Origin: Liolophura sinensis
Lineage: Eukaryota; Mollusca; Polyplacophora; Chitonida; Chitonidae
DNA: 64,000 bases
Assembly (NCBI RefSeq): GCF_032854445.1
Contig: NC_088300.1
Location: forward strand, 72,392,984-72,456,983
Direction of reading: 5' to 3'
In this document: piece by piece, positions 25,668 to 55,464 of the stretch
How positions within the stretch are numbered: position 1 is the stretch's first letter
Layout of the letters: every line of letters begins with the position of its first letter
Made by a program: the position numbers and the translations under genes
The notes under the pieces: model-generated
Told to the model about the DNA's origin: nothing
Databases searched by the model: none
The model's input: only the letters and a program-made list of their open reading frames with translations

Positions 25668-25725
25668 TATATAAGTAGTTATATCTGGGCAATGTTCAAC
25701 ATACCTTTTGCTGAGAACATCAGAG
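25668..25725 (+). promoter_or_regulatory. gene A core promoter and leader exon
   Basis: The TATA box tatataag is at 25,668-25,675. An initiator-like ttcaac places the likely start (A) at 25,698, 30 bp downstream. A leader exon of about 28 nt without ATG ends at 25,725 with the donor agag|gtaagt. The same arrangement precedes genes B-E. The start site is inferred from spacing. Confidence 0.65.
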
Positions 25726-26334
25726 GTAAGTTGAACAGTGGATTTTTTAAAAAATGGAAATAGAACATAGTTACGATATTTAAGAAAGAGATTTTTAACT
25801 TTTAGTTTATATATTAACAGGCTAATATGGTGAGAAAACTACCAGTAATACAATTTCACGTTAATAGCATTGAAGAAGGTTTGTCTTTTTATTGATGGTC
25901 TTCGAATGTAAAATGTTTTCCTAACAATGTTTGTCTAGAAATGGGTAATATTTTAATTATGTACAAATCGATACAATAATTTTCTGCAAAAGTCTAATTT
26001 CAGTAAATAGTTTGTTAATCATAATATGCAAATGTTATATACTAACAGTGTGACAACGATAACTGTACGCACATCAGGTTTCTTATTGATCAGCACAATA
26101 TCAATCAAAAATGCAAGACAATATCAAGTCAAATTACCATGGCGCTTAATTATTGAAGCATGAAAACATCACTGCAGTCTCGCACAACCCGTTTATATTA
26201 ATATACATTTTGAGGAAATTTTTTTTAACGAAATTAGAAATATCTATCTGTGAACGATCGCTAGTGGAAAGTTAAGGTAAATTTGATACCCAAAATGTAT
26301 AGTGCTATAGACCCTCCTTAGAAACAGCTTCGAT

Positions 26335-26600
26335 GGTCTAATGGTTAGACCGGCGGCGTCAAAGTCGCGAAACACCAAAGACTTTAAAAGAAGTACTACT
26401 TGTTGTTGCCTCCCTTGGCGTTCTGCACTGAGGTTGTGGAGCAAGTAAACAGGACTGTCAGTCTAATGTGACTGGGTGAGGTGTCATGGTGTCTTGGGCA
26501 TGATATTTCAGTGTGGGCAGCACTTTGGCGGCATGCACTCGCCCTGCCACATGTATATGTACACATATCTAATGACTCTTCGTCGTCATATGATTGAAAT
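26335..26600 (+). repeat. SINE family B copy (tRNA-derived)
   Basis: The tRNA-like head is gatggtctaatggttagacc. It is followed by ttgcctcccttggcgttctg, gtcagtctaatgtgactggg, gatatttcagtgtgggcagc and gcactcgccctgccacatgt. The same ordered blocks occur at 37.55 kb (plus) and 48.6-49.0 kb (minus). The copy lies in intron 1 of gene A. Confidence 0.75.
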
Positions 26601-26998
26601 GTTGTTTAGGACTACGTAAGAACACAAGAGTACATATTAGCATGCTTAAGTTTCTCTGTGTATGTAGCTTTTTCGCGAAGTATTTGGAGGGGATTGATTG
26701 TATACATGTATAACAAGTGTTTATCACGTTACAAAACGCTATATTGTGACGTAACTTGATTTGTAGCATTGTGTTTGCGTATGTGTAATTTGGAGTCATT
26801 CCATTTCTCCGCCGAAATGTGCAACCTCCAAGGTTTGTGTGTTTTGTGGTTCATCTCTTTTATGAAGGACGATTTTATTTCACTTTTACGCACAAAAAAG
26901 AACAGTTTACAACGATATATGAGTGAGTATTCTGTTGCTATAATTAGCTAAAACAATATCATTGTGAGAAACCAAACGGCTGAAGTTTTTGTTTCAGG

Positions 26999-28113
26999 AT
27001 GAAGGCGTTAGTCATCTTTGCAGGCCTCGCCTGCTTGGCCATCGAGGTGGCGACGACTAGGGGGCATGGACCTATGGCACAGGTGAGTCTGTAGGAAGCT
27101 TGCACATTCAAAATGTATGCTCTGAACCGCATTATGAAGTTCATCTAATTTAATCATCTCATCACAAAAATATCCACGATACGTGTCATGAACGAACCAT
27201 GGATCCTGGTAAAACAGAAAGACTCACGATTTCATTATGTTTTTATAAAGAAAAGGCAGAAAAAATAAATTGACAGTGGCATTTCGTATACTTTAACTCA
27301 TTTAAATGCTTTTTAAATTCACCAATAGTATGCGCTTAACTCATAAGATATACGGAAGCACTTGACATTTTTGGAAAGATTTTTAGTTTGTCATTTTAGT
27401 ACTATTTAGCTTTGTTATCCCATTTTGTTAATCACCAGGCATCTTTGGAAAAACACATGCCACTAGCCAGGACCAGGTTGCCCCGTGCTACAGCAAGGCA
27501 AGGGCTTGAATATTTAGATGAAGAGAATGAAATAGAAGAAAACGCACTGATCGAAGCAGAAACCATAGCTATAAAGAAACGTCGGGCCGAGGAGGAAGGA
27601 GTTATGCCAGCTGAAGGACCAGGCGAAGAGGAAGGAGCTATGCCAGCTGAAGAACCAGGCGAAGAGGAAGGAGCTATGCCAGCTGAAGGACCAGGCGAAG
27701 AAGTAGCTATGCCGGGTGACGGGAAAGGCACAGACGCCGAGCCGTCGGGCACAGGGAAACGGCCATCTGGCGGGAATAAACAGCGAAAGGGAAAGCTCTG
27801 CAGACGGCGAGGAAAATGTGGGAAACGACAAAGGATGTGTATGAGAAAGAGAGGCAAACTTTGCAGACGAAAAGGTGGTAAGGCTAGAAAAGCAGGTAGG
27901 CGTGCGCGAAAATTGCAGAGACGTGGGAAGAAACGTGGGAAGAAACGTGGAGGGCGGGGACAGAAATCCCTTCAACGTGGAAAGAAGGTCCGAGGACGTG
28001 GGAAAAAGCTCAGAGGGCGTGGGAGGAATGTCCGAGGACGTGGGAGGAAGGTCCCTAAACGTGGCAAAAAATCCCGCGGGACGAAACCTCGTAGACGTGG
28101 GGGGCCATTATAA
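26999..28113 (+). CDS. gene A: secreted Glu-rich / Arg-Lys-rich cysteine precursor
   Basis: Exons are 26,999-27,082 and 27,439-28,113 (252 aa), phase 0, donor cacag|gtgagt and acceptor caccag|gc. ATG lies one base after an acceptor (tttcag|gATG), so a non-coding leader exon precedes it. Residues 1-20 form a signal peptide (hydrophobic core LVIFAGLACLAI). The next part is acidic, with three to four 12-residue EEEGAMPAEGPG-type repeats. From about residue 140 it is strongly basic with four cysteines (149, 155, 162, 170; C-x5-C-x6-C-x7-C). A tail of RGRGKK-type repeats of about eight residues follows. KKRR and GKRP are possible convertase sites. The protamine-like tail would be odd in a secreted protein, but the signal peptide argues against a nuclear role. 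It is the first of five genes with the same plan. Function is unknown; a cationic host-defence or matrix peptide is an inference. Confidence 0.8.
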
Positions 28114-28147
28114 AGCCGAATTAATGTAATTTATGATATTCTTACAT

Positions 28148-28153
28148 AATAAA
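28148..28153 (+). terminator. gene A polyadenylation signal
   Basis: AATAAA lies 35 bp after the stop codon of gene A, in cataataaagtct. Confidence 0.75.
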
Positions 28154-28159
28154 GTCTTG

Positions 28160-29700
28160 AATGTCCTATAGCGTTTGCTGATAAGATGAGTTGTCCAGAG
28201 AAATAAGGACAATAGCGTTTGTTCGAAAGTTCAGTTCGTTCAGATGTGATATTGTTTTCGTAATTCAAATGCAAGCAAGTTTCGTTTGCTACACTTTTCT
28301 GGTTATTCTGTACACGTTACTAATGATTAACATCTGAGATTAGTCAGATACTTTTCTGTAAAACATTTTTAGCATGTAAGGCTTTGTTCGTGTAGATAAA
28401 TCAAATATCGTGATTACGACAAGAAACGAGTTTCGTTTGTTTTCATGTTTCGTCAGAACCAGTGAGTTCTTCGGTTTTGTCAAGCTATGTACTGCCTTTT
28501 TAACACTAATTGCTACTCATCCTAGAGCAATGGTTTCAGAAATACACGAACAATATTTACTTCGATGGGTTTTAATCTATGCCCAACAAATTTTAACTAA
28601 TATTTCGGTGGTCGGGATTAGGGGGTAGGCAGCCGAAATATCCCGAATAAACAACCGACCTTCGTCAGGTACTTGACAAACCACTCGACTTGAAGCCCAA
28701 ACAGAGAGAGCTTGATTTGAAGACACGATCAAATTGGTCAAGGGCTTGATATTCGCCGTGAGACTTAATCGTTTCTGTTCATAAAATACTTTATCTTTGT
28801 AAAAACCGTGTATTCGGGGATATTACCGTGGAATCAGATAGGATACCTCATGAGCGTGCGAAACGGCGTTGAACTCACACATCTGTAATATCGCAAGCTT
28901 GCGGATCTGACAGTCCCAAGAATAATATTTTCATATTGTTATAGATAATCAGCGCTCTTTGGGTTGGGGGGGGGGACCTCAATGTCTAATGTCCAAATGA
29001 GACTTTCGGTCACAAGAGTAGTCTCTATTTTCATGCGCATGGTGTACATGCTTCAAGTCCTTTAATCCTCGCAGACCGCATGTAATTATTAAATTCTAAA
29101 CGTTAAATTTAAAAGACATTTTGGGGAAAAAACATGACCAAGAGAGTACGCATGTCTGGATTTTGTATTTCTTAACGTCTACTTATGTATAATGAGCCAT
29201 TCGTGTGGCGTCATACGTCTGTCAGCTTACTGTGATCATTTGTCAGCTATCACATTATCGCCGCTGTTCTGGTTTTACTCTGTGCTGTATGTCTTTCATT
29301 ATATATATTGTAGATGTATTCCTGGTTAAACCAGGATTCTGCTGGTAGGCTAAGCTTGTCCGAGGCCTGGTGGTTGTTTAACGTGATTATATGTTAAATA
29401 TGATGACAACTCAGCACTTTGAGCAACTCTAGATCAGTGGTGTGTTTTACATTGCAATTAATATAACTGCATTGCTGTTTTTACCTAATTCTGCATAAAC
29501 CATTGTGCTAGGGGGCATGTAAATTGCTACTATACATTTACATAAACAGTTAGAATTAAGCTCTGACTGATGTAAACTGAAAAGAGAACGTATTTCAGCC
29601 AGCTTTCACACTTTCGTCACTCATCTGGGTGTGCTCTATGCTGTACGTTTTTAAATGTGCGACAGGGCTTGGTTATCAATTCTCGCTCGGTAATTATTCC
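28160..29700. other. no gene recognised
   Basis: Spacer between genes A and B with short random open frames. A run of ten G occurs near 28,970. No repeat family is recognised. Confidence 0.45.
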
Positions 29701-29882
29701 TCACATTTTCCTCACCTTTCCCCTTCACCCTCATTTTGCTGGCTGATTTCGTCCACCTCACCTTTGCTGGCTGATTTCGCTCCACTTAAGTCTGGTGGCT
29801 GACTTCGTTGCCCTCACCTTTGCTGGTTGATTTCGTTCCTCAAAATCCTTGCTGGCTGATATCATTCTACCTCACCTTTGCT
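29700..29882 (+). repeat. tandem repeat of about 28-30 bp, five to six units
   Basis: The phrase ctttgctggctgatttcg recurs, separated by short variable ccacctcac-like linkers. Unit length is uneven. Confidence 0.8.
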
Positions 29883-30134
29883 TCTTAAATAAATCTGAGC
29901 TGATCACACGGGGATTAACGTGCGGGCAAAGAAACCGTCATTTCGCGGAAATGACCTTTTCCAACAAACCAATCTTGTTGTGGTTGTCTCAGTGGCAAAC
30001 TAAGCCAAGATACTGCTTCTGTATTAATTTGTTGTCACTGTCTGAAAGACATATATCTGAGCTATAGGACATATAAATATACCCTCCCGAAAAAGAAACG
30101 CATATGTATAGTACATGATGGTGACATGAAGAGG

Positions 30135-30360
30135 AATGTCAGAGATTCTGGACACTCCGTTCACATTTGGTTACAAGAGAATTATACTTATTGTATCTGA
30201 GAGTATCTAACTGAATGTGTTTGATAGAATAATCTTGGCACTCTAGTTTGTGCAGTACATGTGACGTTGATTGCAATCGTTAAATAACACATAGGATCTA
30301 ACAAATGCTACAAGGGGAGATATGTACACACCACATGCAGGACACTTCGGTATGTTGGTT
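30135..30360 (-). mobile_element. Penelope-like element fragment
   Basis: The sequence matches the segments at 21,660-21,900 and 33,235-33,470 block by block: agagattctggacactc, ggatctaacaaatgctacaa, and gatatgtacac followed by a cat-rich stretch. In the other two copies this region encodes the C-terminal part of the reverse transcriptase on the minus strand. Here only a stub remains. Confidence 0.65.
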
Positions 30361-30465
30361 GGGCAAATGTCTGTTGGTGTTTTCTTCAGAATTCAGTTTT
30401 TTCACTTCTGTAGAAGTTGTTTATTGAATTATTTTACTTTCTGGTTCAAGACTTCTAACGTTTCT

Positions 30466-30730
30466 GTGTCACAAGATGACAGTATCTCATCGTAGTCACA
30501 GGCCTACTCATCATGCTGCGTCCCTAAAACATTATGTCAAGGACACCGGTCATAGTATATTTACACTGGACAACCAACACTTTCGCATTCCTGCTGATGG
30601 TGAGCGTGAATACAGTACGACGCCAGCAAATGCATTGTATGCCTTCTGCATGACGCCATTAGGAATTGAACCGCTGACTTCTGGATCCAGCATGAAGAAT
30701 GGGGTAACCATTCAGGCTTCAGCTGAATAG
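30466..30730 (+). pseudogene. possible retroelement tail (weak)
   Basis: An open stretch reads KHYVKDTGHSIFTLDN and then TPLGIEPLTSG. Both resemble conserved pieces often seen near the end of retroelement proteins with a GIY-YIG-type tail. It lies on the strand opposite to the neighbouring Penelope-like stub. The match is from memory of motif style only and could be coincidence. Confidence 0.25.
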
Positions 30731-31987: not shown

Positions 31988-32032
31988 TATATATACAGAT
32001 CTCATGTTGTACAAAGAAACCAAAAGAGGAAG
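31988..32032 (+). promoter_or_regulatory. gene B core promoter and leader exon
   Basis: The TATA box tatatata is at 31,988-31,995. A short A-rich leader ends at 32,032 with the donor ggaag|gtaagt. The start site is not clear: a start about 30 bp from the TATA gives a leader of about 15 nt. The layout parallels genes A, C, D and E. A 3-kb intron follows. Confidence 0.5.
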
Positions 32033-33960: not shown

Positions 33961-34269
33961 TAAAAAACCCCATCATTTTCTATTGTTACACTGCTGTACT
34001 TGTGAACTACATATTCGCTTTACGAGAACAACTTTCAAAGAAACAGTAACATACCGGCATGAGAGAAAGGGTTAAAAGAGTTCATTCCTTATAACTGCTT
34101 GGTTGGCCGCACAGTGTAACCCATACGTGTAGACAAACTTAATATTTAGTGTAAAATGATTTAGTATCCCTGTAACTTGATTGCTCTACCTTGTTTTCTT
34201 TTTGTTAACAAAGCCTTAACTGAACAATACCCATATTTTGGTGTCCAATAAAACAAATTTTTTTTTGAA

Positions 34270-34858
34270 TGAAACTTACAATCAGAAAATGTGTCATGAG
34301 TATGCAATCTATAAGAAAATGTGTCATGTGTATGCAACCTATAAGAAAACGTGTCATGTGTATGCAACCTATTAGGAAAAGTCTCATGTGTATGCAACCT
34401 ATAAGAAAATGTGTCATGTGTATGCAACCTATAAGAAAATGTGTCATGTGTATGCAATCTATAAGAAAATGTGTCATGACTGCAACCTATAAGAAAATGT
34501 GTCATGTATATGCAATCTACAAGAAAATGTGCCATGTGTATGCAATCTATAAGAAAATGTGTCATGAGTATGCAAAATATAAGAAAATGTGTAATGTGTA
34601 TCCAATCTATAAGAAAATGTGTCATGTGTATGCGACCTATGAGAAAACGTGTCATTTGTATGCAATCTATAAGAAAATGTGCCATGTGCGTGCAATCTAT
34701 GGGAAAACGTGCCATGTGTATGCAACCTATGAGAAAATGTGCCATGTGCATGCAAAATATAAGAAAACGTGTCATGTGTATGTAACCTATAAGAAAATGT
34801 GTCATGTGTATGCAATCTATGAGAAAATGTGTCTTATGTATGCAGACTATGGAAAACT
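34270..34858 (+). repeat. 30-bp minisatellite in gene B intron 1
   Basis: About 20 units of 30 bp contain gtgtcatgtgtatgcaacct and then ataagaaaat. One unit near 34,471 is 28 bp and shifts the phase. As 30 is divisible by three, frames stay open on both strands (for example a KKMCHVYAIY decamer on plus). The array ends about 155 bp before the signal-peptide exon of gene B. Confidence 0.95.
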
Positions 34859-35014
34859 ATGATCAGCAGTCTTCCTTATGCTTTTCTCGTTACAAATTTT
34901 AGAGCAGAAATCAGAAAGACGATAGTTAAAAGGCAAACACAAATTCGTTTTCTGTAGACGCAAACAATTTTCTTAATGACCAACACTTTTTCTGTTTTTT
35001 TTTCTTCTTTTAGG

Positions 35015-35674
35015 ATGAAGACGTTTACAGTCGTCGTCGTCCTCATAGTAACTGGCATCTCAGTGATCAACGTATTGGCGGTTAGTGTGCAAAAATCATC
35101 ACAAATGGTAAATGTCTGGGTGATATGTATGTAGGTTCTTACAACCGCTTGGAAACTAGGCTCAGGCTCAAATCCGACCTGGGACAAGGAATTTGTAGAT
35201 TCACCCACTCTCAGTCATAGTGGAACCTTTCCACGTGAAGCGGCAATGTATATTATTTATTTTATTCTTTTAATCAGTGGGATAAATGAAGCGGTAGTTC
35301 AAACAGCCATCATCACAATAGCCATATATTTAAAAGGCTGTACAATGGATGAATGTTGTGCTAAACCTAGTATATCACTAGTGTAAGCACGTTGAATGCT
35401 TTGACATGAAGCTTGAATACATTTATACTACCAGGCAAGAAGCCAGAATAAAAATACTGGGAGCCAGAGTCGACGGGCACAAAGCGTCGGCAGTGCAGTA
35501 CAAATCAAGAGCCGACAGTTAGAGAGTCATAAGCAACAGACACAGAGCCAGAAGAAACAGAAGCAGACCCAGATGAAACAACAAAAAAGCCACACCCAAG
35601 AAAACCGGAGCCGGAAGCAACAAGGACATGGTCAGAGGACACCACCGCAACAGAAAAGACAAGAAACGCAATGA
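35015..35674 (+). CDS. gene B: small secreted Gln/Lys/Arg-rich peptide
   Basis: Exons are 35,015-35,107 and 35,435-35,674 (110 aa). The acceptor cttttag|gATG precedes the start, the donor is caaatg|gtaaat and the acceptor is ctaccag|gc, in phase 0. Residues 1-22 form a signal peptide (VVVVLIVTGISVINVLA). The mature part of about 88 residues is rich in Gln, Ser, Lys and Arg (for example QSQKKQKQTQMKQQ). It has no cysteine and almost no acidic residues. It lacks the Glu-rich segment of A, C and E, so family membership rests on gene layout and the MKTF-type signal exon. Dibasic pairs near the end (QQKRQ) could be cleaved. A 30-bp minisatellite and a Penelope-like remnant occupy intron 1. It may be an old decayed member; the last exon is open for 80 codons. 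Function is unknown. Confidence 0.6.
35151..35275 (+). repeat. SINE-like fragment, family C
   Basis: The blocks ggctcaaatccgacctggga, ggaatttgtagattcaccc and ctctcagtcatagtgg match the segment at 2.43-2.55 kb in order. It lies in intron 2 of gene B. Confidence 0.5.
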
Positions 35675-35964: not shown

Positions 35965-36199
35965 TGGTTAGCGCGCTAGCGCAGCGTGATGACCCAGGAG
36001 CCTCTAACCAATGCGGTCTCTGTGAGTTCAAGTCCAGCTCATGCTGGCATCCTCTCCGGCCGTAAGTGGGAAGGTCTTCCAGCAACCTGCGGATGGTCGT
36101 GGGTTTCCCCCGGACCGTGCCCGGTTTCCACCCACCGTAATGCTGGCCGCCGTCGTATAAGTGAAATATTCTTGATTACGGCGTAAAACACCCATCAAA

Positions 36200-36299: not shown

Positions 36300-37546
36300 C
36301 TCTTTGTATCATACAAGGTGTTGGTTCAGTCCCAAGCGCGGACCTACGAGGTGCTGGTTAAGTCCCAGCCTCGCACATACCAGGTGCTGGTTCAGTCCCA
36401 AGAATGGACATACGAGGTGTTGGTTCATTCCCACCTTTGCACATACGAGGTGCTTTCAGTCCCAGACTCGTTAGCACGATGTGCTGGTTCAATCAAAGGC
36501 GCGGACATACCAGGTGGTGATTCAGTCCCATGGGCGGAAGTACAAGGTGCTGGTTCAGTCCCAGCCTCGAACATACTAGGTGTTGGTTCAACCTCAGCCT
36601 CGCACATACGAGGTGGTGATTCAGTCCCATGGGCGGAAGTACATGGTGCTGGTTCAGTCCCAGCCTCGCACATACTAGGTGTTGGTTCAACCTCAGCCTC
36701 GCACATACGAGGTGGTGATTCAGTCCCAGCCTCGCACATACAAGGTGTTGGTTCAGTTCGAGCTTCGCACATACTAGGTGCTGGTTCAGTTCAAGATTCG
36801 CACATACTAGGTGCTGGTTCAGTTCAAGCTTCGCACATACTAGGTGTTGGTTCTGTCCCAGCCTTGCACATACCAGGTGCTGGTTCAGTCCCAGATTCGA
36901 TAGCATAATGTGCTGGTTCAATCAAAAGCGCAGATGCTGGTTCAGTTCAAGCTTCGCACATGCGAGGGGCTGGTTCAGTCCCAGGGACGGACATACAAGG
37001 TATTGATTTAGCCCCAGCCTCGGACATACAACGTGCTGGTTCAGTCCCAGGGACGGACATACAAGGTATTGGTTTAGCCCCATGCGCGGTCATACGAGGT
37101 GCTGGTTCAGTTAAAGCGTTGGGCAAAGCAGATGTAGCTTCATCCCAGACGCGAAACATACGAGATGCCTGTTCAGTCCCAAGGACGGACATACAAGGTG
37201 CTGGTTCAGTCTCAGACTCGTTAGTACGATGTGCTGGTTCACTCCCATTCCCAGAAATAAGAGGTGCCTTTTCACTCCCATTCTCAAACATACAAAGGAC
37301 TGGTTCAGTCCCATTCTCGAACACACGAGCTGTTGGTTCAGTCCCAGGCGCGGACATATAAGGCGCAAACATACCAGGTGCTGGCTCAGTCCCATTCTGG
37401 AACACAGGAGATGCTGGTTCAGTCCCAGCCTCGTTAGAACGAGGTGCTGATTTAGTCCCAGCCTAGGATATACGTCGTGTAGGCCCAAGGTGATGGTTCA
37501 GTCCCAGGCGCGGACATACCAAGTGTTGGGTCAGTCTCAGCTTCGT
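36300..37546 (+). repeat. 33-bp minisatellite, left block
   Basis: Around 37 units of 33 bp contain ggtgctggttcagtcccagc and cgcacatac. Substitutions are frequent but unit length is mostly preserved. Long frames therefore remain open on both strands (GAGSVPASHIL on plus, MCEAGTEPAP on minus). No signal peptide, splice or start context supports a gene. Confidence 0.95.
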
Positions 37547-37905
37547 TAGCACAGGATAGCTCAGCTGGTATAACGTCAGCTGCGGGGGCGGTAGATCCAG
37601 AGTCAATCCTGAGTCAAGTCACACTGAAAAGCTTAAAAGAGGAAGTTGTAAATTCCTCGCTTGGAATTCAGCATTAAGGGGATAGTGCAATGACTGGTTG
37701 ACCCGTATCAGTGTAATGGCTTGGGTTGGAAAGCTTACTTTCCTTCAGTAAGTTGTCTCAGTGAAGCAGCACTAGATAAACGAAAGGTCGAAATCCGTCC
37801 TGCAACAAGGAGGCACATTATATATACGCTAAGGACTAAGGAATACGCTCCGTCGTCAGATGACCGAAAAATTGTTAAAAAATTGTCAAGCACTTATTCA
37901 CTCGC
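37547..37905 (+). repeat. SINE family B inserted in the 33-bp minisatellite
   Basis: The tRNA-like head is gatagctcagctggtataac, and cggtagatccagagtcaatc covers the B-box region. The body continues with aattcctcgcttggaattca, gcattaaggggatagtgcaa, ggttgacccgtatcagtgta and aggttgtctcagtgaagca-like text. The 9-bp string tagcacagg occurs at 37,547-37,555 and again at 37,906-37,914. It flanks the element as a probable target-site duplication, and the array resumes straight after it. Confidence 0.8.
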
Positions 37906-38205
37906 TAGCACAGGGTGCTGGTTCAGTCCCAGTCTGGGACATACACGTTGCTGGTTCGGTCTCAGTCTCGTTAGCACAAGGTGCTGGGTCAGTCCCAGCC
38001 TCGTTAGCACAAGGTGCTGGTTCAGTTCCAGCCTCGTTAGCACAAGGTGCTGGTTCAGTCCTAGCCTTGTTAGCACAAGGTGCTGGTTCAGCACCAGGGG
38101 CGGACATACGAGGGACTGGTTCAGTCCCAGTCTCGTTAGCACAAGGTGCTGGTTCAGTACCAGGAGCGGACATACGAGGGGCTGGTTCTGTAGCACATGG
38201 GGATA
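37906..38205 (+). repeat. 33-bp minisatellite, right block
   Basis: About nine units continue the left block in the same orientation, with cctcgttagcacaaggtgct as a common variant. The two blocks were one array before the SINE inserted. Confidence 0.95.
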
Positions 38206-40509
<2,304 letters not shown>

Positions 40510-40776: not shown

Positions 40777-40844
40777 TATATATACTGATTGATATGTCTG
40801 GCACATTCATCTCTTATTGGAGAGAGAAAACACGAACACAAAAG
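40777..40844 (+). promoter_or_regulatory. gene C core promoter and leader exon
   Basis: The TATA box tatatata is at 40,777-40,784. An initiator-like ttcatc puts the likely start at 40,809, 32 bp downstream. A leader of about 36 nt without ATG ends with the donor aaaag|gtaggt at 40,844. The segment between TATA and start (gatatgtctggcacattca) resembles the one in gene A (ttatatctgggcaatgttca). Confidence 0.65.
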
Positions 40845-41273
40845 GTAGGTAATACAGCAAAGTTTTATGTCTTCGCTATCATTTTATAATCTTTGCTCAC
40901 AAATTTCATTTCATAAAATCCAGTTTTTGTTAGCTTAAACACAAGTTATTGGCGAGAGGTTTCTCAAATCTGTACAGTGGATCACCGGGTCGTCCACCTG
41001 GTACGCTTTATCCTAGCAGAAATTCGACCTCCCCCTTTTATGGCTTTAGTCCATATAGACATATGTGGTAGGGGGCTTTTGTGGCAATTTAAATAAAACT
41101 ACTGGACATCCACAGTTTACATAGTCAACTTATCACCTTTCATAAAGAAAATTGGATGGCATAAAATCAGTTTTTTAAAAAGAAATCTTTTTTGTGAACT
41201 CCAATGATCGTATTCACACATAAGTTACATTTATCTGATGTTGTCTAAATCATTAGTTTTCTTTCTTTTTAGG

Positions 41274-43220
41274 ATGAAAACGTTTGTGCTCTTTTCCTTG
41301 GCTTTCGCCTGTCTGACTGCTCACGTGACTGCTGCTAACGAGCAGAGGCTATCGGAGCAGGTGATTATGGTCCTAACAATTATTTCATTGTTAGAGGCGC
41401 TTAGATTTCTTAATCCGCCATTCAAAACCAAAATGGCCTTCCCTAGATTTTAGCTCACGAGGTTGTCTGCTTTGAAGTCTAGTTCAGTACAATGACCTTT
41501 ATGACCTCCTCTGTATTTCCTATGGGAACTGTTTCATTGGCTGATAAATTTTCCTGTCAGGGGCCATAAATTCTCCTGCCAAAGTTGTGAACTATTAATG
41601 GGAGCGAACTCTCCTCTCACAAGCATTGTCAATGTATTATACCTACGTTAGGGAAGTGCGCCTCACTTTCGCGAGGATTGAGTATATCACTTGTGCCTGC
41701 CTGTATTGTCTTGGTGATGCCCTTAGTCTAGTTGCTGTCCGTTTTAAAGACAAACTACCAATGTTAAACCAATGTACGGTATTCAAGCTGGAGGGGTTGG
41801 CCTTCATCTATACATAGCTCATACATTTTTACGAAATATAGATTTATTAACAACGGGGGAGAAACTACTGTATATAAGGATTTTACCCCATCCAGTCAAG
41901 CGTCAGCGTGCTTGACAGGGACTGTGAAATGCCCCTGTGTTCCACCTTTGTGCCTTCCGAGTAAACCACCCACGAAACGAATGAAATCAAATAGATTTGG
42001 TCACCGGGAAGACAGTGCTGACTTCAGTGTTTTGTTGATTGGGAGGGAGACCTGGGGTGAAATGAAAGTAAGCTATTAAAGTGTGTGCCTTACACTAAAA
42101 GTAAAAACAGTGGTGAGAATATTCGGTGAAAGTTATCGGTGAGAACTGCCGGTGGAATTACCGATGGGATAGTACCCTTTGCTCATGTCAGACATTTTCT
42201 GACACTCTTCTGAGTGTCGGTCCTTGAAAAGCCTATTGGACACGTAAAAAGCCAACACGTTTACCGATTTACTGGTTTTGTTAGTGTGACTAGAACTTAT
42301 AAACAAGGGATGAACAGTTAACTTTCCAAGAGACATACGTAGAAAGCATAGAAGTTTGGACAGTTCTTTCACATTTTTGTGTGCTTCTTGTACAGTCATA
42401 CTACAATGGTGTAATAGTGCTGTTTGTTTTTAACCAGGGCGATGTGGATATAGAAACTGAGTTAGACAACAAAGTGAGATCTGTCCGGGCAACTGGAGAG
42501 GAAGGCGGTGGGGAAGAAGGCGAAGAGGGAGAAGGCGAAGAAGAAGGTGAAGAAGAAGGTGAAGAAGAAGGTGAAGAAGGCGAAAAAGAAGGTGAAGAAG
42601 AAGGCGAAGAAGCAGAAGGAGAAGAAGGACAAGAAGAAGGTGAAGAAGGCGAAAAAGAAGGTGAAGAAGAAGGTGAAGAAGGCGAACAAGAAAAAGGTGA
42701 AGAAGAAGGCGAAGAAGCAGAAGGAGAAGAAGAAGGAGAAACAGGAGGCAGCGAACCGGAAGGAACAGAGGGAACAGAAACTACAGAACTGACAGAAACG
42801 GAAGGTGGTGGTGTGGAGGAAACAGAGATATCTGGTAGAGAAAAACGACAGGCCTTGAAACCAGAAATAGCGGAGCCAGCATTGGCGAGTGGGAAAAAGC
42901 GCAGCCCTTGCACTTTACTGCGAAGATGTTTGCGAAGCAAAAAACGATCATGTAGACGTCTGAGGAATATCATCCGTCGTCGGGTGGGTGGGAAAGGCCA
43001 CAAACCGGAAGAGAAAAACCGCCAAAAACGACAAGTAGCTACGAACGAGGTGACTGCAGCGACAGGAAATTGGGCCAAATACAGAAGCCTTTGTCAAGTA
43101 TTGCAAAGATGTCTGCGAGGATACAGGCTATTCTGTCGGCCTATAATACATACCATCCGTCGTCAGATAGTTAAACCTCACAGATCTGGCAAGCCGGAAG
43201 AAAAGCCTCGTAACGCGTAA
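41274..43220 (+). CDS. gene C: precursor with acidic propeptide and two three-Cys cationic peptides
   Basis: Exons are 41,274-41,360 and 42,438-43,220 (289 aa). Acceptor cttttag|gATG, donor gagcag|gtgatt, acceptor taaccag|gg, phase 0. Residues 1-20 are a signal peptide ending HVTA, and ANEQRLSEQ follows. Residues about 49-155 are Glu/Gly repeats (EEGEEEGEE). KR at 165-166 and at 183-184 leads to peptide 1 (185-227) with Cys187, 193 and 201 (C-x5-C-x7-C). KR at 226-227 leads to peptide 2 (228-289) with Cys248, 254 and 262 at the same spacing. Both modules continue into an Arg/Ile stretch (RLRNIIRRR; RPIIHTIRRQ). Gln follows two KR sites and could cyclise. The plan fits an anionic propeptide masking cationic peptides, as in many antimicrobial precursors. 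The odd Cys number suggests dimers. No named family is recognised. Confidence 0.87.
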
Positions 43221-45314: not shown

Positions 45315-45385
45315 TATAAAGAGGATTACTAGCCTGACTTGTCCATTTGGTGTTCCATCGTAAACACATCACAGCGATAACAGAG
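45315..45385 (+). promoter_or_regulatory. gene D core promoter and leader exon
   Basis: The TATA box tataaag is at 45,315-45,321. A gtccat motif places a possible start at 45,345, 30 bp away. A leader of about 41 nt without ATG ends with acagag|gtaagt at 45,385, the same donor text as gene A. Confidence 0.6.
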
Positions 45386-46158
45386 GTAAGTACTGTCGTC
45401 AGTAGTGGGGGGTCACTTTTGGGTAGGATGGTATAAGTTCATTCGGGGTTAAATATTGTTTGGATGTATTGATAAATACAAAGGCAATGTACTGGACCAA
45501 TGAAATTTTGGGAAACCAGTCCCAGACTAACATATAAAAGCTGCTGAAAAAGATATTGCATAGAAGAATTTTCTGATTCACGTGGTATATCTGCCTCAGC
45601 TCAAAATAATGTAATTAATTTAATGCACCGTCATTTTCAGACTAGTTACACAATGATATATGCAGAATGTCAGTAGTTATGAAACAAATCAGCGAGGTTT
45701 ATTCAACGAAGCCAGGTCACAAGTGGACATTCACCTCTGCCACTGGTATCACCATCATCTGCCATCTGGAAGATAAATTAAAAAGTCTCAGGTAATAGAG
45801 TGACTAGCTTGCTTTTAAGCTGTCTTTGGAGCTACGTGGCAGTATCAAACACGTATTGTATTTAAATGCTTCCGAGGCAGGTGTCACTTCTTCAGCATTT
45901 TAGCTATAGCAAATGTGTTTTTCTTTAGCAGCATATTCCTATACTTATGTTTTTTTCCAGAAACACTCAGTGTTGAACTAAGGCAAAATTCTACCGACTT
46001 AAGCAATTTACTGAACTTCTCGTGAACCGGGCCAATATAGGTGCACTAATTTTTGTATCGCATACTATCGACTTTTTTTTTCGAATGCTGAACTTGCCAT
46101 GCTTTTGTAAGCTACTCATCTCAGGAAGACTAAAACTTGACTTGGTAATGTTTTCAGT

Positions 46159-47490
46159 ATGAAGACGTTGGTGCTCCTTGTCCTTGTTCTGCTTTTTCAA
46201 ACAACTCACGTGCCAGCGGCCCATGTGAGAAGGCTGTCAGATCAGGTGACTATCTTAATCATTTGTCTTAAGGTTCAGTTAGTGAAAGTAAATATGCTCA
46301 AGCTAAAAAGTATCAAGCAAAAAGACAGTTGTGTTGCTACTGGTTTTAGCAAGATGGAAAGGAAAGATGGAGAGGAAAAAAGCTCTGAAAATTGAAGAAG
46401 GCATCACTAAACAGACCACTTAAAACTATGTATAAATGTTCTTTCATTTATTGTTTTATTCAATTTTTGTGAAGAGAGTTAAAGGCGTTCAAACCTTTTA
46501 TTGATAAGGTGGTCTTTAAGGACCATACGAAAAAAGGAGATGTGACTAGAGCTCATAAAGCCCACTTTACTATTTAAATATCTGAATGCATTTCAACACT
46601 CTTACAAATCTGAAAAAGTAAATAAAAGTATTTTTACACATAGTTTTCAGTTGTCTGCATGATGAACCTTACTTCACAATTTAGCCTTCTTTTACTTTAA
46701 GTATATCTTATATTTGACGAAGTGAGTTGGTTTCACTGAACATTTTTCTGCTGCTCATGGCTAGGATTGAGCTGCATTATTATATTGTCATATTGTTGCT
46801 GAACGCTACAAAGCAGGAAATCTCTGAACACAAAGTATGAGCGATTGTATGGTGACTCACACAACTTTTACGCGTATACGTTCAGCTCTAATTAAACTTG
46901 TTGTGGAATGTACTCATATAATGTGTGCCATCTGTGTATGGAAAAGCAAATCTAAAATGAAATACTTTTGTTTCAAGACCCAAGTGACCGTGACATCATA
47001 GACGACATATGTGAATGTGACATCATTGACGACATATATGTCATTTAGAGATGAAATCTTGTGACCTTCAACAGCTATTCAACATGGTTCCACATATAGA
47101 AAGTGTGTTTATATGTCTTTTAACCAGGACACTCTGAAGACACCAGTCGTCTCGGACATTATAAGAGTTATCCGAACAGCAGAACAAGGGGGGAATGGTG
47201 AAAATGGTGGAGACAAACAGACTGGGACAGAATCCAACAGACCGGAAACAGAAGGAACCGAATCTATAGGAGTGCAAGAGAGTGGGGATAACAGTGGAAG
47301 AACAACAGTGGAGGCAAAGACCATGGTGACGTCACCACCATTGGGTAAACAGAACAAACCCCCTAGAGCGAGTTTTTGCAGTATACTGAAAGATTGTTTA
47401 AAAAGAGGCAGAGGACGGTCGTGTCTACGTATCCGGAATATCATAAAACGCAGTAAGCGGAATAACAGAAAGCCATCGAGGTACATCTGA
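46159..47490 (+). CDS. gene D: secreted precursor with one three-Cys cationic module
   Basis: Exons are 46,159-46,245 and 47,128-47,490 (149 aa). Acceptor tttcag|tATG, donor atcag|gtgact, acceptor taaccag|ga, phase 0. Residues 1-20 form a signal peptide (LVLLVLVLLFQ, ending HVPA). AHVRRLSDQ follows and parallels ANEQRLSEQ of gene C. The middle is polar, rich in Gly, Glu, Thr and Asn (TAEQGGNGENGG, then TESNRPETEGTES). The C-terminal module has Cys113, 119 and 128 (C-x5-C-x8-C). It continues into LRIRNIIKRSKR, matching peptide 1 of gene C. No KR lies just before the module, so the release site is unclear. Of the five genes, this is the closest relative of gene C. A cationic secreted peptide is likely; its role is inference. 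Confidence 0.85.
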
Positions 47491-48970: not shown

Positions 48971-49194
48971 GTTGAGGCAATGAGGTTGGATGATTGGAGC
49001 GATTTCACTGAACCGAAATCCTGACAATTTGATAATACTTTATACATTGACGTGTCTGAGATAATTCTTATTGTCGTATTGCTGTACCACAAAATATCAG
49101 GGATATGTAATTCATTTTACATTGAACGTCCTGCTTAAACATTTTTTAGCGATATAACGATAAGGAGGTGTGTATGTATACATGTAATGCGTTT

Positions 49195-49335: not shown

Positions 49336-49439
49336 TCATTTTTTTTTAACCTCTCAGTGTTAACCTCTCAGTGCCAAGCGAATCAGCAACAAGTAGCAAT
49401 AAAAGGCTTTCGTATGAACTGACCAGGGGTTTATCTCGG

Positions 49440-49645
49440 GTCACCAGACAGTGACACAGGAACTTCCCACTAAGGTTTTGAGTTCCGCACATGCTGGCTA
49501 TCTCTCTGGTCGCAGCTGAGAAGATCTTCCAGCAACCTACTCATGGTCGTGGGTTTTTCACGGGCTTAACTTGTTCCTCCCATAATGCTAACCGCCGTAA
49601 GCTCGACGTAAAACTCCAATCAAATAAATAAATAAATCACGAATT
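49440..49645 (+). repeat. SINE family A, degraded head
   Basis: The copy carries gagttccgcacatgctggct, agatcttccagcaacctact, catggtcgtgggtttttcac, cataatgctaaccgccg, gacgtaaaactccaatcaaa and an (AAAT)n tail. The head is eroded. Confidence 0.85.
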
Positions 49646-49678
49646 ATTACTACAAGATTTGGTGAGCTTCTCCTATGA

Positions 49679-49700
49679 CCCTCCCCACCCCCCCACCCCC
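49679..49700 (-). other. C-rich run, G-quadruplex pattern on minus strand
   Basis: The runs ccc-t-cccc-a-cccccccc-a-ccccc give four or more G-tracts on the opposite strand with one-base loops or tract splitting. Confidence 0.5.
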
Positions 49701-50064
49701 ATATCCTCAGGACTCACCCATGCTCACAGGCTTTTTTAGCTAAGGTAGAAATTCAATGAAACTGTTATATTATACACTTAAAACTAAGGTGTTACATTTA
49801 ACACGGTATAGGTCACGAGGAATGACTGCAATTAGAAGAGCTATCTGACCGTGAAGATTTAATGTTTCAACAATCATCAAAGTGTTCACATTCCAACTCT
49901 ATTAAAAGTGAATGAACTTTATTAATTAAAACCTTAAACCAACACTTGAGATAGAGTTAAAAACAATTTAACACTTTTAATGGAGTTAGAGTATGAACCC
50001 CTTTGAAAAAGGTTGAAACCTTCGCACTTAATAAAACAGGTCAGATACATGTATTAACACTCAT

Positions 50065-50125
50065 ATATTTAGTTTCTTGATTGGTGTTCTACGCTGTGCT
50101 CGAGAATATTTCACTTACCCTATTT
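50065..50125 (-). repeat. SINE family A 3' fragment
   Basis: The text ttgattggtgttctacgctg and cgagaatatttcacttaccc is the reverse complement of the family's 3' end. The body is absent. A similar tail stub (aaccaatcaaataaat, plus) lies near 50,757-50,773. Confidence 0.7.
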
Positions 50126-52390
50126 CTTTTAAAATTCGGGACGTCTGGTCTGCTCATTTTAGTCAAATTTAGTTAAATTTATATATTTAATTCTAGCAGA
50201 AATATTGAGTTTCGTTTTGTCTCACCTAGTTAGACAATCTAATAAAACAACATCCTCATATCCTCACAAATAAAGCGTATGAGGTGGCGCCAGATTAATT
50301 ATTATCAAGATGAAGGCAAAGGGAAGACTGGGTAAAATGCTGGGCTAGGTAAAGAATTTTCTTTCTGTCGCTTCATCTAAAGTGAAAGCGTCAGATATAT
50401 CAAGGTCAGTGGCTAATAGGAAACCAACCCTGGGTAATGTGTGATCGCTTACACATTTAATATGACCCTATTGAACATGACGATGTTGTTCATTTTTCCA
50501 AACAATAAAGATGCAGATACTTGAATGTAGCTCAGAAGTATGCACTGGAAGGACTAGATGCTATTGTTAAGTGGGTTAGATTCTGGCCTTTGTAAATTCA
50601 CAGTGCAGTCGGGCTAGCGCCCTCCCACGTGCAAAAGCGGGGACATACGCTCTGCGAATTTTTTTCAACCCAACGGGAAATACGATCCTGTCGTTATTTA
50701 AATTTGATATCTGAAGTATCGTAACTTAAAAAGCTACTTAACTACGTTAACATACAAACCAATCAAATAAATCATTGCACTAGTTGCTCTATTTCATTGC
50801 ATATTTCATAAGGTAATAAAACAACTATGCAATTGTTTTATGAAGTCATGCCTACATGTTTTAAAGAACGTTAGAATATGGAGTTTACCTAGGGCGTCAT
50901 AATGCCGTACTCGGATTCCCATTTGCCACTTTGCAGACCGCTCCCTCCATAGCCCACAAAATTTTAACAGGCTAACCCCCGTACATCTGTTAATGTACAC
51001 TTTTGTAAAAAAAAGCGACGCCTGGAATCTCACAGCGTCAAGGGCCTAGGCGGTCCTTGGACCCTCGCCTATATGTACTTGTCTGGGATAGCCGTTCCGC
51101 ATGTCTTTGTACATGTCTGTATCCGCCCACTCTAAACTCCATCAGAAAGCTGGCAGTTCGAGCACCAATACATATTTGACTATATTTGTGTTGTAAGTAC
51201 GTAGAGTGGTGGAGTGATTCGGTAGAAAAGATTGTGCCAAAATGTGCAGGATTACAATTTCATCTATGGACCTGTTTTACTCATTAAACTCTCTCAACCG
51301 TGTGTACAGCTACATAGGATCCAACTGAGAGTTTCCTTGGCTTTCGAGATGAGAACGATTTTCTCCTATATTAATAATATTCCATATTATCCTATAATAA
51401 CTCAAAAGTACAAGTTAAGATATTTTAATATCATTGTTTATGTGTTACCTCTCACGTACTACCTGAAAATGTGACGGAGGCCGAAGGCTATGCAAATATA
51501 ACGGCGTAGAAAGGAGGCCTCGTATTGATGCAATACCTCCGTTGTGGTGAAGTTCTGATTGTTCCAGAACTATATTTACTTGTTTACTCCTTTTCCCTAT
51601 TGTTAGGCGGCAATTACATTTGTCGTTTTTCACATGCAGAGAGGTAAAATGCTAAATATTTGTCCTGTAACCTGGTAGAGACGTGACTTCAGTAAGTACA
51701 GATATACCATAATAAGTCTATACACAATCAAAAAATGCCAAAAAGCTACGTTATACGTACATGTATATTCGATTATTATTCCATAAAATGACGATAAATT
51801 AAACTGAAGGAATAACAGGAAACTTCTCAGGGGAAGGCAGAAGAATCTCAGTGCTATCAAATATTTTGGGTATTTTGTGGAAATTTGAGCTAATAATCTC
51901 AACATATTTTCTGGAAATTAAGAAACATCTAAGGCGAACTGATATTTATCGCTTAATATGTTCTGATGAATTCCCAGGCAACACAAATACAAAAGGACAA
52001 TGGAATTATTAGATCGTGCACCAAGTTGCTGAAGTTCAGGCTCTCGTGGACAGTTTTGATTAGTTCAGTCGGTGTTTGTGGCGTCATAAATTGACGGAAG
52101 CACTTTAAATCGCAAGGTTTGGTGACTCATTAAGAAATGGATAGGCTACAAACACTTAAGAAGGAACCTCTTTCATAAATCACATCCTATTTTAAGCAGC
52201 CGGTCACCAGAGACAATAGGTGGAAACGAATTTTGCAAATTTTATGCTCAAATTTTAAAACTGCTTTCCTTTAAAACACTGTCTGAAAGAAAACATTTGG
52301 ACATGGCGTGACGAGAAAAAACGCCTTAAACAATAAGTGATTATATTTGACACGCTTAACATACTCTTGAGCAATTGCAGCCATGCAGTA
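50126..52390. other. no gene recognised
   Basis: AT-rich spacer between genes D and E. No gene is recognised; only the SINE tail stub at 50,757-50,773. Confidence 0.45.
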
Positions 52391-52393
52391 CGT

Positions 52394-52478
52394 TATATAA
52401 AGCGACTGCCTAGATACAGCTTTCATATATCTCTACGGCTGAATACAGTAAGCACTGAACTCCACGAACTCACCAAAG
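52394..52478 (+). promoter_or_regulatory. gene E core promoter and leader exon
   Basis: The TATA box tatataaa is at 52,394-52,401. The initiator-like tttcat places the likely start at 52,425, 31 bp downstream. A leader of about 54 nt without ATG ends with ccaaag|gtaagt at 52,478. Confidence 0.65.
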
Positions 52479-52839
52479 GTAAGTTTTGTGTCTTCTGTTT
52501 CTGTTCAGACTGGTTTCGACCGTTAAGCAAACTGCAAATATTCGTTATATTTTCATGTGTAACTGGATTGTATAGCTTCTTAAATTATGCGGGTATTTCC
52601 AGTATTAGATAGATTAATCTGTTTATTTTTATTTTCTTATTCTAACGCGATGACGAACAAACACGTGGGTAGCTTCTGTTGTTCATGTATATTCTGAACA
52701 TAGCGTTATGAACATCCAAGGTACGTTGACCGCTATGTTTTGGTAAATTAAATCAGGTCACACCAAACCGACGGCATTTGACTCCATTCAGCTCGACCGG
52801 AATCTTCTTAGTGTGGCCACTATACTCGGATGATTACCT

Positions 52840-53100
52840 CTATTTTATTTATTTATTTATTTCACTGGTATTTTACGCCGTACTGAAGAATATTTCACTT
52901 ATATCATGGAGACAAGCATTATTATGGGAGGAAACCGAACAGAGCCTGGGGGATATTCACCACCACCTGCAGGCTGCTAGCAGACCTTCCCACGTACGGC
53001 CGGAGGGGAAGCCAGCATGAACTGGGCTTGAACTTACAGCGATGAGTGAGATGCTCAAGGGTAATTGCGCCGCGCTGGCACCCCAATCACATCGGCCACG
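52840..53100 (-). repeat. SINE family A, near full-length, in gene E intron 1
   Basis: From left to right: tttatttatttatttcactg, tattttacgccgtactgaag, tatttcacttat, aagcattattatgggagg, gcagaccttcccacgtacgg and agcatgaactgggcttgaac. These are the family in reverse. The tRNA head lies near 53,030-53,095. Confidence 0.9.
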
Positions 53101-53567
53101 GCTTCACCTCGTTTAAAACCCAGAGCATACGGATAACATTTGCTTAGCAAAACCGGGGTTTTGAGATTCAACCAACAAAAATCCTTCGAAATTTTGTTCG
53201 TGTACGGTTAACCACAACAATAATTAGTTACTGATGATCTTTCGAGATCGGGGTGGTCAAAAACGGATCATTTTGTGACTGCGATCTGAAACTGTTTTTT
53301 TTTTTTTAGCAACAAATGTTGCTCTTGTGCACTGAGCTTAAAATGTCGAGTCTGATTATGGTTGTCCGCCACATGAATTAGAACGACATTAACCTTAACG
53401 TGTGTAACAAAGCCTACATGTTATAAAATAAACGTTGCCGTCTGTGAACAAATTAAACAAAACTGAATCTAAGACATGAAAAACTGACGGCGAATAAATA
53501 TATCTAAATTGTTTACATTAGCACACCATATGTAACAAAATTTCTGTTTTCTTTCTTCTTTTACAGA

Positions 53568-55283
53568 ATGAAGATGTCTATAGCCTTCCTCGTCGTTCTA
53601 GTCTGTCTGGCAGTGAATGTGCCGGCACGGAGCCTGTCTGGGTCGGAAATGCAGGTGAATGTTTAATTTATTTCTTTATTTCAGAAGTGTTCAACAGTAC
53701 CTCTAGACCAGTATGGTTGCATGGTCCATGCTAATGTTTATGATGACTGAAACAGGTCAGAGTCTGCTAGAAATTACTTTCCACTGCTAATGACCAAAAT
53801 CAGCGTTTTTAGTGTAGAGGACGCAGGGGGCTTAGAACACGCGATTATATTGTTAATGAAGTAGGGAACTCAGCTAAACCCCTTCATAGACTGCTCAACC
53901 AACGAACACAGACATGCACACCTTCATGAGCTTCATCAAATACCTATTCAAATACCTATCCCTATATTACATGACTGTCATCAAATACCTATTCAATACC
54001 TATTCCATATATTTTTTATAATGTTGGCTTTTCAATGTGGTTTCTTTATGTTCTTATAGGATTATTGCAACACTAGTATTATAACAATAAAAACACCTTT
54101 TTATCAGTGGAAAGTTATACATACTGATAAATAAAACAGGGATCATTTATAGGTAGGTTTATATACCATCTCAGGATTTGGGCTAAATGCATGGTGCGAA
54201 CATTTAGAGGAAAACGAACGAGCCATCCTGGTAACGTGGCTAGTCTGTGAATAAGCCTCTCTGTCTATTCGCTAAGCAGAAGTCCATTGTATATTTTATT
54301 CCACGAGATCAAACCAATTCGTGTAGAATTATTCTGGCGGACTGATACTTACCCTATGTTTTGTGTTACAATTCTAGGGTGCTGTTGACGAAATGGCGTC
54401 AAACGACAATTTGATGCCAACGTTACCGGAAAACACAGGAGAAATAATGAATAGAGATGGATCAAAAGTCAGCGGCGAGAGTATGGAAAGTACGGAGAGT
54501 GCGGAGAGCAAGGCAAGTGCGGAGAGTTCGGAGAGTGACGAAGAGGGAGAGAGCGACGATGACATGAATGACGAAGAAGAAGGCGAAAAAGAGATGGAGA
54601 GCAAAGAGGAGAGCGAAGGCACAAGATCTGAAGAACCGTTAAATGGAGAACCGCCTGAGGGGCCTTCAGTCAGTGACCCCACTGGTGAGGAAGGCGGTGA
54701 ACAAGAAGGTGAGGAAGGCAGTGAACAAGGGGATGGAGAAAATGTTGAGGGCAGACGGAGACGCAGTGCAATGACAGGTGCTGAACAGGGAGGCCAAGAA
54801 GAGGGCGAAGGTGGTGAAGGAGAGAGTGGGAAAGGCGGTGAAGAAGGTGGTGAGCAGGGAGGCCAAGAAGTGGGCGAAGGCGGTGAAGAAGAGGGGGAGG
54901 AAGGCGGTGAAGAAGAGGGGGAGGAAGGCGGTGAAGAAGAGGGGGAGGAATTCGGTGAAGAAGAGGGGGAGGAAGGCGGTGAAGAAGAGGGGGAGGAAGG
55001 CGGTGAACAAGAAGGGGAAGAAGGGGAGGGAGAAAATGGTGAAGACAGACGGAGACGTAGTGCAACGACAGGTGCTGAACAGGGAGGCCAAGAAGAGAGC
55101 GAAGGTGGTGAAGGAGAGAGTGAGAAAGGCGGTGAAGAAGGTGGTGAGCAGGGAGGCCAAGAAGAGGGCGAAGGCGGTGAAGAAGAGGAGGAGGAAGGCG
55201 GTGAAGAAGAGGGGGAGGAAGGCGGTGAAGAAGAGCGGGAAGAAGGAGAAGGGGAAAGAGAAAATGGGGAGAAGGAAGATTAA
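53568..55283 (+). CDS. gene E: secreted Glu/Gly-rich protein with two RRRR sites
   Basis: Exons are 53,568-53,654 and 54,378-55,283 (330 aa). Acceptor tttacag|aATG, donor atgcag|gtgaat, acceptor attctag|gg, phase 0. Residues 1-20 are a signal peptide (IAFLVVLVCLAVNVPA), followed by RSLSGSEMQ. Next is a Ser/Glu segment (SMESTESAESKASAESSES), then Glu/Gly repeats (GGEEEGEE) to the end. RRRR at 155-158 and 253-256 are furin-type sites, each followed by SAMTGAEQGG or SATTGAEQGG. The segment after each site is alike, so about 98 residues were duplicated. There is no cysteine after the signal peptide and no cationic peptide, unlike A, C and D. It could be a Ca-binding matrix protein or a precursor whose peptide module was lost. 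Confidence 0.83.
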
Positions 55284-55458
55284 TAAATTTAATTTATTTT
55301 TGAAGAAAATTTATTTTTCAAGTATTTTGTATTTATTGTTGTTAATACTAAAAGCATTATCTTTTCTTTATTTATTTCTTCAAAGCATTTCAGCTCTAAC
55401 TGAATTCCAGATGTACTTTTATACCTTTCCACTAATGAATATTTTGTTCGTACTAATG

Positions 55459-55464
55459 AATAAA
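55459..55464 (+). terminator. candidate gene E polyadenylation signal
   Basis: AATAAA in aatgaataaatttc lies 176 bp after the stop. Another AATAAA overlaps the stop codon itself (55,282-55,287) but is probably too early to be the main signal. Confidence 0.5.

What the first reader, a model, noticed from the sequence alone, without database searches (positions are those of the whole stretch)
25668..55464. Cluster of five same-strand secreted-precursor genes with identical exon plan but divergent products
Genes A-E (starts 26,999; 35,015; 41,274; 46,159; 53,568) all have a TATA box, a short non-coding leader exon, an intron, a 28-31 aa signal-peptide exon with ATG at base 2 of the exon, a phase-0 intron, and one last exon for the whole product. 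The signal exons are alike (MK[TAM]-type start; ends HVTA, HVPA, NVPA; then RLSEQ, RLSDQ). The last exons range from Glu-rich to Gln/Lys-rich to Arg/Cys-rich. This looks like a fast-evolving family in which secretion and expression modules are kept and the product changes, as in venom or host-defence peptide clusters. I know no named family with this combination.
Basis: partly seen in the sequence, partly recalled or inferred. Interest (0 to 1): 0.92.

Follow-up and report, generated by a model that had tools for sequence, protein, structure and literature searches.

The report
Chiton cluster of charged secreted precursors
A mollusc, most likely a chiton, carries five neighbouring genes that share a secretion exon but encode very different, highly charged products; two of them look like undescribed defence-peptide precursors, though nothing here tests what they do.

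Summary
Genes A-E all give open two-exon coding models with GT-AG, phase-0 introns and an AATAAA within 250 nt of the stop. A scan of 244 kb found this signal-exon layout on the + strand only at A-E, plus one minus-strand hit; 12 simulated 244-kb strands gave 3 hits in all.

C and D are clear paralogs: signal exons, exon-3 layout and a three-cysteine cationic module align, and the module is duplicated inside C. C has a relative, P0001, 63% identical over 88% of the queried part, from an unnamed source; cysteines, RxKR sites and cationic modules are kept. A, B and E are tied in mainly by signal exon and position.

Assembly statistics point to the chiton Liolophura japonica.

Best reading: a family of charge-partitioned secretory precursors found so far only here and in P0001. 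C and D probably release host-defence-like cationic peptides. E (all acidic) and B (all basic) fit this poorly, so a structural-matrix role stays open. The plan resembles mussel myticalin genes but fails their order and intron phase. Splicing and function are untested.

The parts
25668..25725 (+). Gene A: TATA box and predicted leader exon up to its donor (start of transcription not known)
   Evidence: prediction
26998..27082 (+). Gene A: signal-peptide exon, 28 codons
27439..28113 (+). Gene A: last exon; RLPR at 27475-27486, acidic part, then Arg/Lys/Cys-rich part
31988..32032 (+). Gene B: TATA box and predicted leader exon up to its donor
   Evidence: prediction
35014..35107 (+). Gene B: signal-peptide exon, 31 codons
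35435..35674 (+). Gene B: last exon; Gln/Lys-rich, net charge +15
40777..40844 (+). Gene C: TATA box and predicted leader exon up to its donor
   Evidence: prediction
41273..41360 (+). Gene C: signal-peptide exon, 29 codons
42438..43220 (+). Gene C: last exon; RSVR at 42477-42488, Glu/Gly-rich part, two cationic modules
   Evidence: relative P0001
42837..42848 (+). Gene C: REKR cleavage-like site before module 1 (RKKR in P0001)
42900..42992 (+). Gene C: cysteine module 1
43020..43031 (+). Gene C: RQKR cleavage-like site between the modules (RPKR in P0001)
43083..43178 (+). Gene C: cysteine module 2, tandem copy of module 1
45315..45385 (+). Gene D: TATA box and predicted leader exon up to its donor
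   Evidence: prediction
46158..46245 (+). Gene D: signal-peptide exon, 29 codons
47128..47490 (+). Gene D: last exon; RVIR at 47164-47175, cysteine module at 47371-47466
52396..52478 (+). Gene E: TATA box and predicted leader exon up to its donor
   Evidence: prediction
53567..53654 (+). Gene E: signal-peptide exon, 29 codons
54378..55283 (+). Gene E: last exon; all acidic (net -104), RRRR at 54753-54764 and 55047-55058, each at the head of a duplicated acidic unit

Best explanation
A tandem family of secretory precursors. A promoter, a leader exon and a signal-peptide exon are retained, while one last exon carries charge-partitioned, repeat-rich products that change fast. In C, and with less support in D, the precursor would enter the secretory pathway, lose the signal peptide, be cut at RXXR soon after the intron site, and have its cationic part held silent by the Glu/Gly-rich acidic stretch. 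In C, cleavage at the RxKR sites would then release two cationic three-cysteine peptides that act on microbes, most likely at membranes. A pairs an acidic stretch with an Arg/Lys/Cys polycation in the same order; B is basic only and E acidic only. Shown: open gene models, paralogy of C and D, duplication of the module, and a 63% relative that keeps cysteines, charge and cleavage sites. Inferred: transcription, splicing, cleavage, charge masking and antimicrobial action.
For: Complete gene models with AATAAA. Layout on the + strand only at A-E in 244 kb. C-D homology of signal exon and modules. P0001: E 4.9e-34, 63% identity, same order of RXXR, acidic run, RxKR, module, RxKR, module; module 1 is 26/31 and module 2 20/32 identical against 9/17 and 14/30 in the linkers; module charges +13/+12 and +8/+11. 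Helical amphipathicity in the two C and two P0001 modules (8, 18, 11 and 31 of 500 shuffles reach it). Helix-turn-helix predicted for each module, pLDDT about 70-75. Precedent of bipartite-charge, lineage-restricted, multi-gene AMP precursors in Hydra (PMC10945409) and mussels (PMC5577615, PMC12294457).
Against: No expression or activity data. E has no cationic part and B no acidic part. D's module is not amphipathic by the same test (203 of 500) and D lacks the RxKR site before it, having RSKR only at the module's tail. Each C and D module has three Cys, an odd number. The model is weak (mean pLDDT 55, 3 sequences) and matches no solved fold (23 rows, best E 4.4). No family match above a cut-off for A-E in Pfam or for C and D in NCBIfam, so no known AMP family is hit. 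D alone and A residues 29-185 found no relative.
Confidence: 0.5

Rival explanations
1. Structural or mineralising matrix: the genes make charged, repeat-rich secreted proteins for shell plates, radular teeth, girdle or mucus, in which polyanions (E, front of C) and polycations (A's tail, B) organise mineral or gel.
For: Repeats and extreme charges in A, C and E; E is net -104 and B net +15. Molluscan shell matrix proteins are often lineage-restricted and repeat-rich (PMC4897951 passages).
Against: The best-kept parts of C against P0001 are the cysteine modules, with RxKR sites kept, which suggests released peptides. RTMP1 of chiton teeth is Gly/Ser-, Trp/Phe- and His-rich (PMC6351634 passages), unlike A-E by reading.
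Confidence: 0.27
2. Regulatory (neuro)peptide precursors cut at dibasic sites to give receptor ligands.
For: RxKR and RRRR sites and duplicated units in C and E.
Against: No run of short repeated peptides; modules are long, strongly cationic and differ between copies (20 of 32 to 26 of 31 kept against P0001). No match in Pfam.
Confidence: 0.08
3. Gamete proteins (sperm or egg coat), fast-evolving and basic.
For: Basic products of A and B; divergent products behind shared signal exons.
Against: Acidic segments and cleavage-like sites are not expected of sperm basic proteins (general knowledge); no evidence either way from any call.
Confidence: 0.08
4. Some of the five are not working genes: E could be a member that lost its cationic part, B or A could be misjoined models whose signal exons splice elsewhere.
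For: B's product resembles no other member; no relative found for A or D; splicing untested.
Against: All five have open frames, phase-0 junctions and AATAAA within 250 nt of the stop; no Cys-rich cationic exon was seen after E.
Confidence: 0.07

Closest known systems
Myticalins (Mytilus) and modiocalins (Modiolus), PMC5577615 and PMC12294457 (passages)
   Same: Three exons (shown there for two myticalin genes and held for the family); exon 1 only 5' UTR; first intron right before the ATG; conserved signal peptide starting MK; cationic product plus anionic low-complexity part; dibasic site; clustered, lineage-restricted, hypervariable genes.
   Different: Order there is signal, cationic, anionic, with signal and mature peptide together in exon 2 and a phase-1 second intron, and the mature peptides lack Cys. 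Here the signal exon stands alone, the second intron is phase 0, acidic precedes cationic, and A, C and D have Cys.
Hydra AMPs such as arminins and periculins, PMC10945409 (passages)
   Same: Signal peptide, biased distribution of negative and positive charge, paralogous lineage-restricted families, Cys patterns.
   Different: No sequence relation was tested; no large Glu/Gly repeat is described in the passages seen.
Molluscan shell matrix proteins with repetitive low-complexity domains, such as KRMPs and shematrins, PMC4897951 (passages)
   Same: Secreted, lineage-restricted, repeat-rich, changing by gain and loss of motifs.
   Different: The best-kept core of C is a cysteine module flanked by cleavage-like sites. 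No sequence of these families was compared.
Big defensins; a transcript is reported in Chiton olivaceus (PMC7203481 passage)
   Same: Secreted cationic cysteine-containing defence peptides of molluscs.
   Different: Six Cys and a hydrophobic N-terminal region (start of abstract of PMC3182236, listing); here three Cys per module.

Membership tests
Myticalin | 5'-UTR-only exon 1 and intron just before the ATG | tested here: inconclusive
   Layout predicted for 5 of 5 genes; no transcript evidence
Myticalin | Signal and mature peptide together in exon 2, second intron in phase 1 | tested here: not met
   Exon 2 holds the signal peptide and a few residues only; phase 0 in 5 of 5 models
Myticalin | Cationic mature peptide followed by anionic C-terminal extension | tested here: not met
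   Acidic part first in A, C and D; B has no acidic part, E no cationic part
Myticalin | Mature peptide without cysteine | tested here: not met
   4, 6 and 3 Cys in A, C and D; B and E have none
Big defensin | Six-Cys cationic C-terminal region after a hydrophobic N-terminal region | tested here: not met
   Modules hold three Cys each; no Pfam match above cut-off for A-E
Antimicrobial peptide (functional class) | Cationic, amphipathic mature peptide released from a precursor | tested here: inconclusive
   Charge and amphipathicity met for both modules of C and P0001, amphipathicity not for D; release not testable
Antimicrobial peptide (functional class) | Kills or inhibits microbes | not testable with these tools
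   needs a bench assay
Shell matrix protein with repetitive low-complexity domain | Signal peptide plus repetitive low-complexity region | tested here: met
   Repeats in A, C and E; signal-like exons by composition only, no signal-peptide predictor was run
Shell matrix protein with repetitive low-complexity domain | Presence in shell or mantle expression | not testable with these tools
   no proteome or transcriptome at hand
RTMP1 (chiton tooth matrix) | Gly/Ser-rich repeats, Trp/Phe-rich and His-rich regions | tested here: not met
   By reading A-E against the description in PMC6351634 (passages); no sequence compared

The most novel reading that the evidence does not exclude
One gene cluster uses a single secretion cassette to make a charge-complementary set: a pure polyanion (E), polycations (A's tail, B) and two-sided precursors whose proteolysis frees cationic cysteine peptides (C, D). 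The products would assemble by charge outside the cell into a gel or mineralising matrix with built-in antimicrobial peptides.
Probability: 0.15. Interest if true: 0.75.

Novelty: new variant of a known kind. Interest (0 to 1): 0.5.

Why it matters
In the searches made, no chiton-specific defence-peptide family turned up: 'chiton' with 'antimicrobial peptide' gave 6 papers, all listed, and 'Polyplacophora' with 'antimicrobial' gave 24, 12 listed. The one chiton case I saw is a big defensin transcript (a passage); I did not open the others, and subscription journals are not in the library. If C and D are such peptides, they show a myticalin-like gene plan in another mollusc class with the charge order reversed. 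If the products form a matrix instead, the cluster is a compact set of candidates for chiton shell, tooth or mucus secretion. Either way P0001 makes the cleavage sites and modules directly testable.

Tried and rejected
Venom: nothing found for it. RTMP1 identity: composition as described does not match. A relative with a solved structure: none by sequence for C's module region; the profile of three modules gave 5 rows at E 0.39-0.55 over 15 positions, all viral fusion proteins, which I take as chance; none by fold. A hidden cationic exon after E: a Cys-pattern scan that asked for at least 7 K/R gave nothing between E and about window position 150163, but it also missed C's own second module, so it is not exhaustive; tblastn gave nothing credible there either. 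Relatives in viral contigs: none. Relatives of D (33 candidates) and of A residues 29-185 (691 candidates): none within the limits set (E 1 and 0.01). Genome-wide paralogs: the C query matched only itself (1 candidate); the D query gave D's two exons and C's last exon (3 of 5 candidates). The C query missed D, so that search is not sensitive and members elsewhere are not excluded. The genome-wide search with C's signal exon did not complete. Literature searches that gave no direct match.
Full report
WHAT IS THERE. The five gene models were rebuilt from the sequence. Each has a signal exon starting one base before the ATG after an AG acceptor, a GT donor, a phase-0 intron (A 356, B 327, C 1077, D 882, E 723 nt) ending in AG, and one last exon ending in a stop, with AATAAA 35-248 nt downstream; in E a second AATAAA overlaps the stop. 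Products are 252, 110, 289, 149 and 330 aa. No signal-peptide predictor was available: the exons were judged by hydrophobicity.

IS IT MORE THAN CHANCE. The window plus 90 kb on each side (L002-L019) was scanned on both strands for an acceptor, 1-3 bases, ATG, 24-35 codons with a hydrophobic core, and a donor. A-E and one minus-strand hit came out. Twelve second-order Markov simulations of 244 kb, one strand each, gave 3 hits in all. The criteria were fitted after the genes were known, and 20 real control stretches could not be had. TATA-leader-donor units are commoner: 11 distinct donors on the + strand, 5 of them A-E, and 3 on the minus strand, against a mean of 4.0 per simulated strand. At the 6 background units per 244 kb, about 0.16 would be expected in the 6.5 kb of the five leader introns (my arithmetic). 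The leader exons remain predictions.

HOW THE GENES ARE RELATED. Signal exons (300 shuffles): C-D z 14.6, C-E 5.5, D-E 4.6, A-C 4.5, A-E 3.9, B-C 3.5, B-D 2.6; A-D, B-E and A-B are matched by 21, 38 and 75 shuffles. B joins best through DNA, 73.6% over 87 nt with E. Last exons: the two modules of C align to each other (z 12.3), D's module to C's first (z 7.9) and second (z 4.2); A's Cys region is only suggestive (z 2.5 with the first, 5 of 300 shuffles), and B's product shows nothing. MAFFT aligns D's last exon with C's along its length. A, C and D have RXXR at exon-3 residues 13-17 (shuffle probabilities 0.025, 0.0018 and 0.012), B has RR at 13-14, E nothing in its first 40 residues. E carries two copies of an acidic unit headed by RRRR. 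Their likeness to the segment after C's RXXR is reached by 1 and 0 of 500 shuffles, to D's by 58 and 154, to A's by 131 and 161; C-D there by 24 and C-A by 0.

THE RELATIVE. A search with C residues 160-289 found one protein at E up to 1 among 50 candidates: P0001, 222 aa, one contig of 5393 bases, source 'lgn', no name. It repeats C's last exon: an RXXR, an acidic run, RKKR, module 1, RPKR, module 2. Identity is 26 of 31 and 20 of 32 in the modules against 9 of 17 and 14 of 30 in the linkers; module charges are +13/+12 and +8/+11. It may be an ortholog or a paralog in another species. D alone and A residues 29-185 found nothing; B and E were not searched.

CHARGE AND STRUCTURE. Net charge after the signal exon: A +42, B +15, C -30, D +11, E -104; the most acidic prefix of C sums to -60 and the rest to +30, A -18 and +60, D -6 and +17. 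Helical moments are high in C1, C2 and the two P0001 modules (8, 18, 11 and 31 of 500 shuffles reach them) but not in D (203 of 500). AlphaFold2 on three sequences gives helix-turn-helix for each C module at pLDDT about 70-75, mean 55, and no solved fold matches.

ORGANISM. The assembly has 609,464,459 bases in 632 contigs; the window's contig has 82,489,547. The chiton Liolophura japonica assembly has 609,495,693 bases, 632 scaffolds and a scaffold of 82,493,220 bases (PMC11068029, passages). The small differences could come from gap handling. I take the organism to be this chiton or its re-filed assembly; it is an inference, not a sequence match.

HOW IT MAY WORK. Removal of the signal peptide, a cut at RXXR, an acidic segment that keeps the cationic part silent, then cuts at RxKR that free cationic modules is the simplest account of C, and with less support of D and A. 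The best-kept part of C is the module with its cleavage sites, which favours released peptides over a bulk matrix. B and E do not fit that account by themselves, so a matrix role for part or all of the cluster is the main rival.

WHAT IS KNOWN. Myticalin genes have a UTR-only first exon and an intron just before the ATG, a conserved signal peptide, a cationic product, an anionic low-complexity part and clustering within a few kilobases (PMC5577615, PMC12294457; passages). Order, intron phase and cysteines differ, so this is not a myticalin family, although it may work like one. Hydra AMPs share the bipartite charge and lineage restriction (PMC10945409 passages). Shell matrix proteins share repeats and fast change (PMC4897951 passages). 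Pfam gave nothing above its cut-offs for A-E (B had weak rows, best E 0.0027 at 17.7 bits under a cut-off of 32.3), nor NCBIfam for C and D.

Noticed in passing
window 60391-64120, minus strand: Gypsy-like retroelement frames; integrase zinc-binding and core domains found in 61279-62178.
   Followed up: partly
window 42478-42792 and 54775-55506, + strand, another frame: The purine-rich acidic repeats of C and E read as Lys/Arg-rich open frames in a neighbouring frame, so the same repeat codes for opposite charges in two frames.
   Followed up: no
window 36310-38260 and 34191-34926: Large arrays with 33-nt and 30-nt units, between genes B and C and inside B's predicted leader intron.
   Followed up: no
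window 16001-18000: Strong local AT skew (-0.371) with long repeat-rich frames on the minus strand.
   Followed up: no
window 36031-36113 and 49481-49563: Two copies, 77% identical, of a dispersed element, SINE-like in look with an AAATAAATA tail nearby.
   Followed up: no
L008:7379-7909 (-), L016:1677-2072 (+), L017:7081-7611 (-): Flanking open frames with a shared Cys-rich look (CC-x-x-C near the end of the unit); no Pfam match.
   Followed up: partly
L016:7395-8036 (-): Frame with a basic helix-loop-helix domain, about 57-58 kb beyond the window's end.
   Followed up: partly
L012:8367-8957 (-): Reverse transcriptase frame about 18 kb beyond the window's end.
   Followed up: partly
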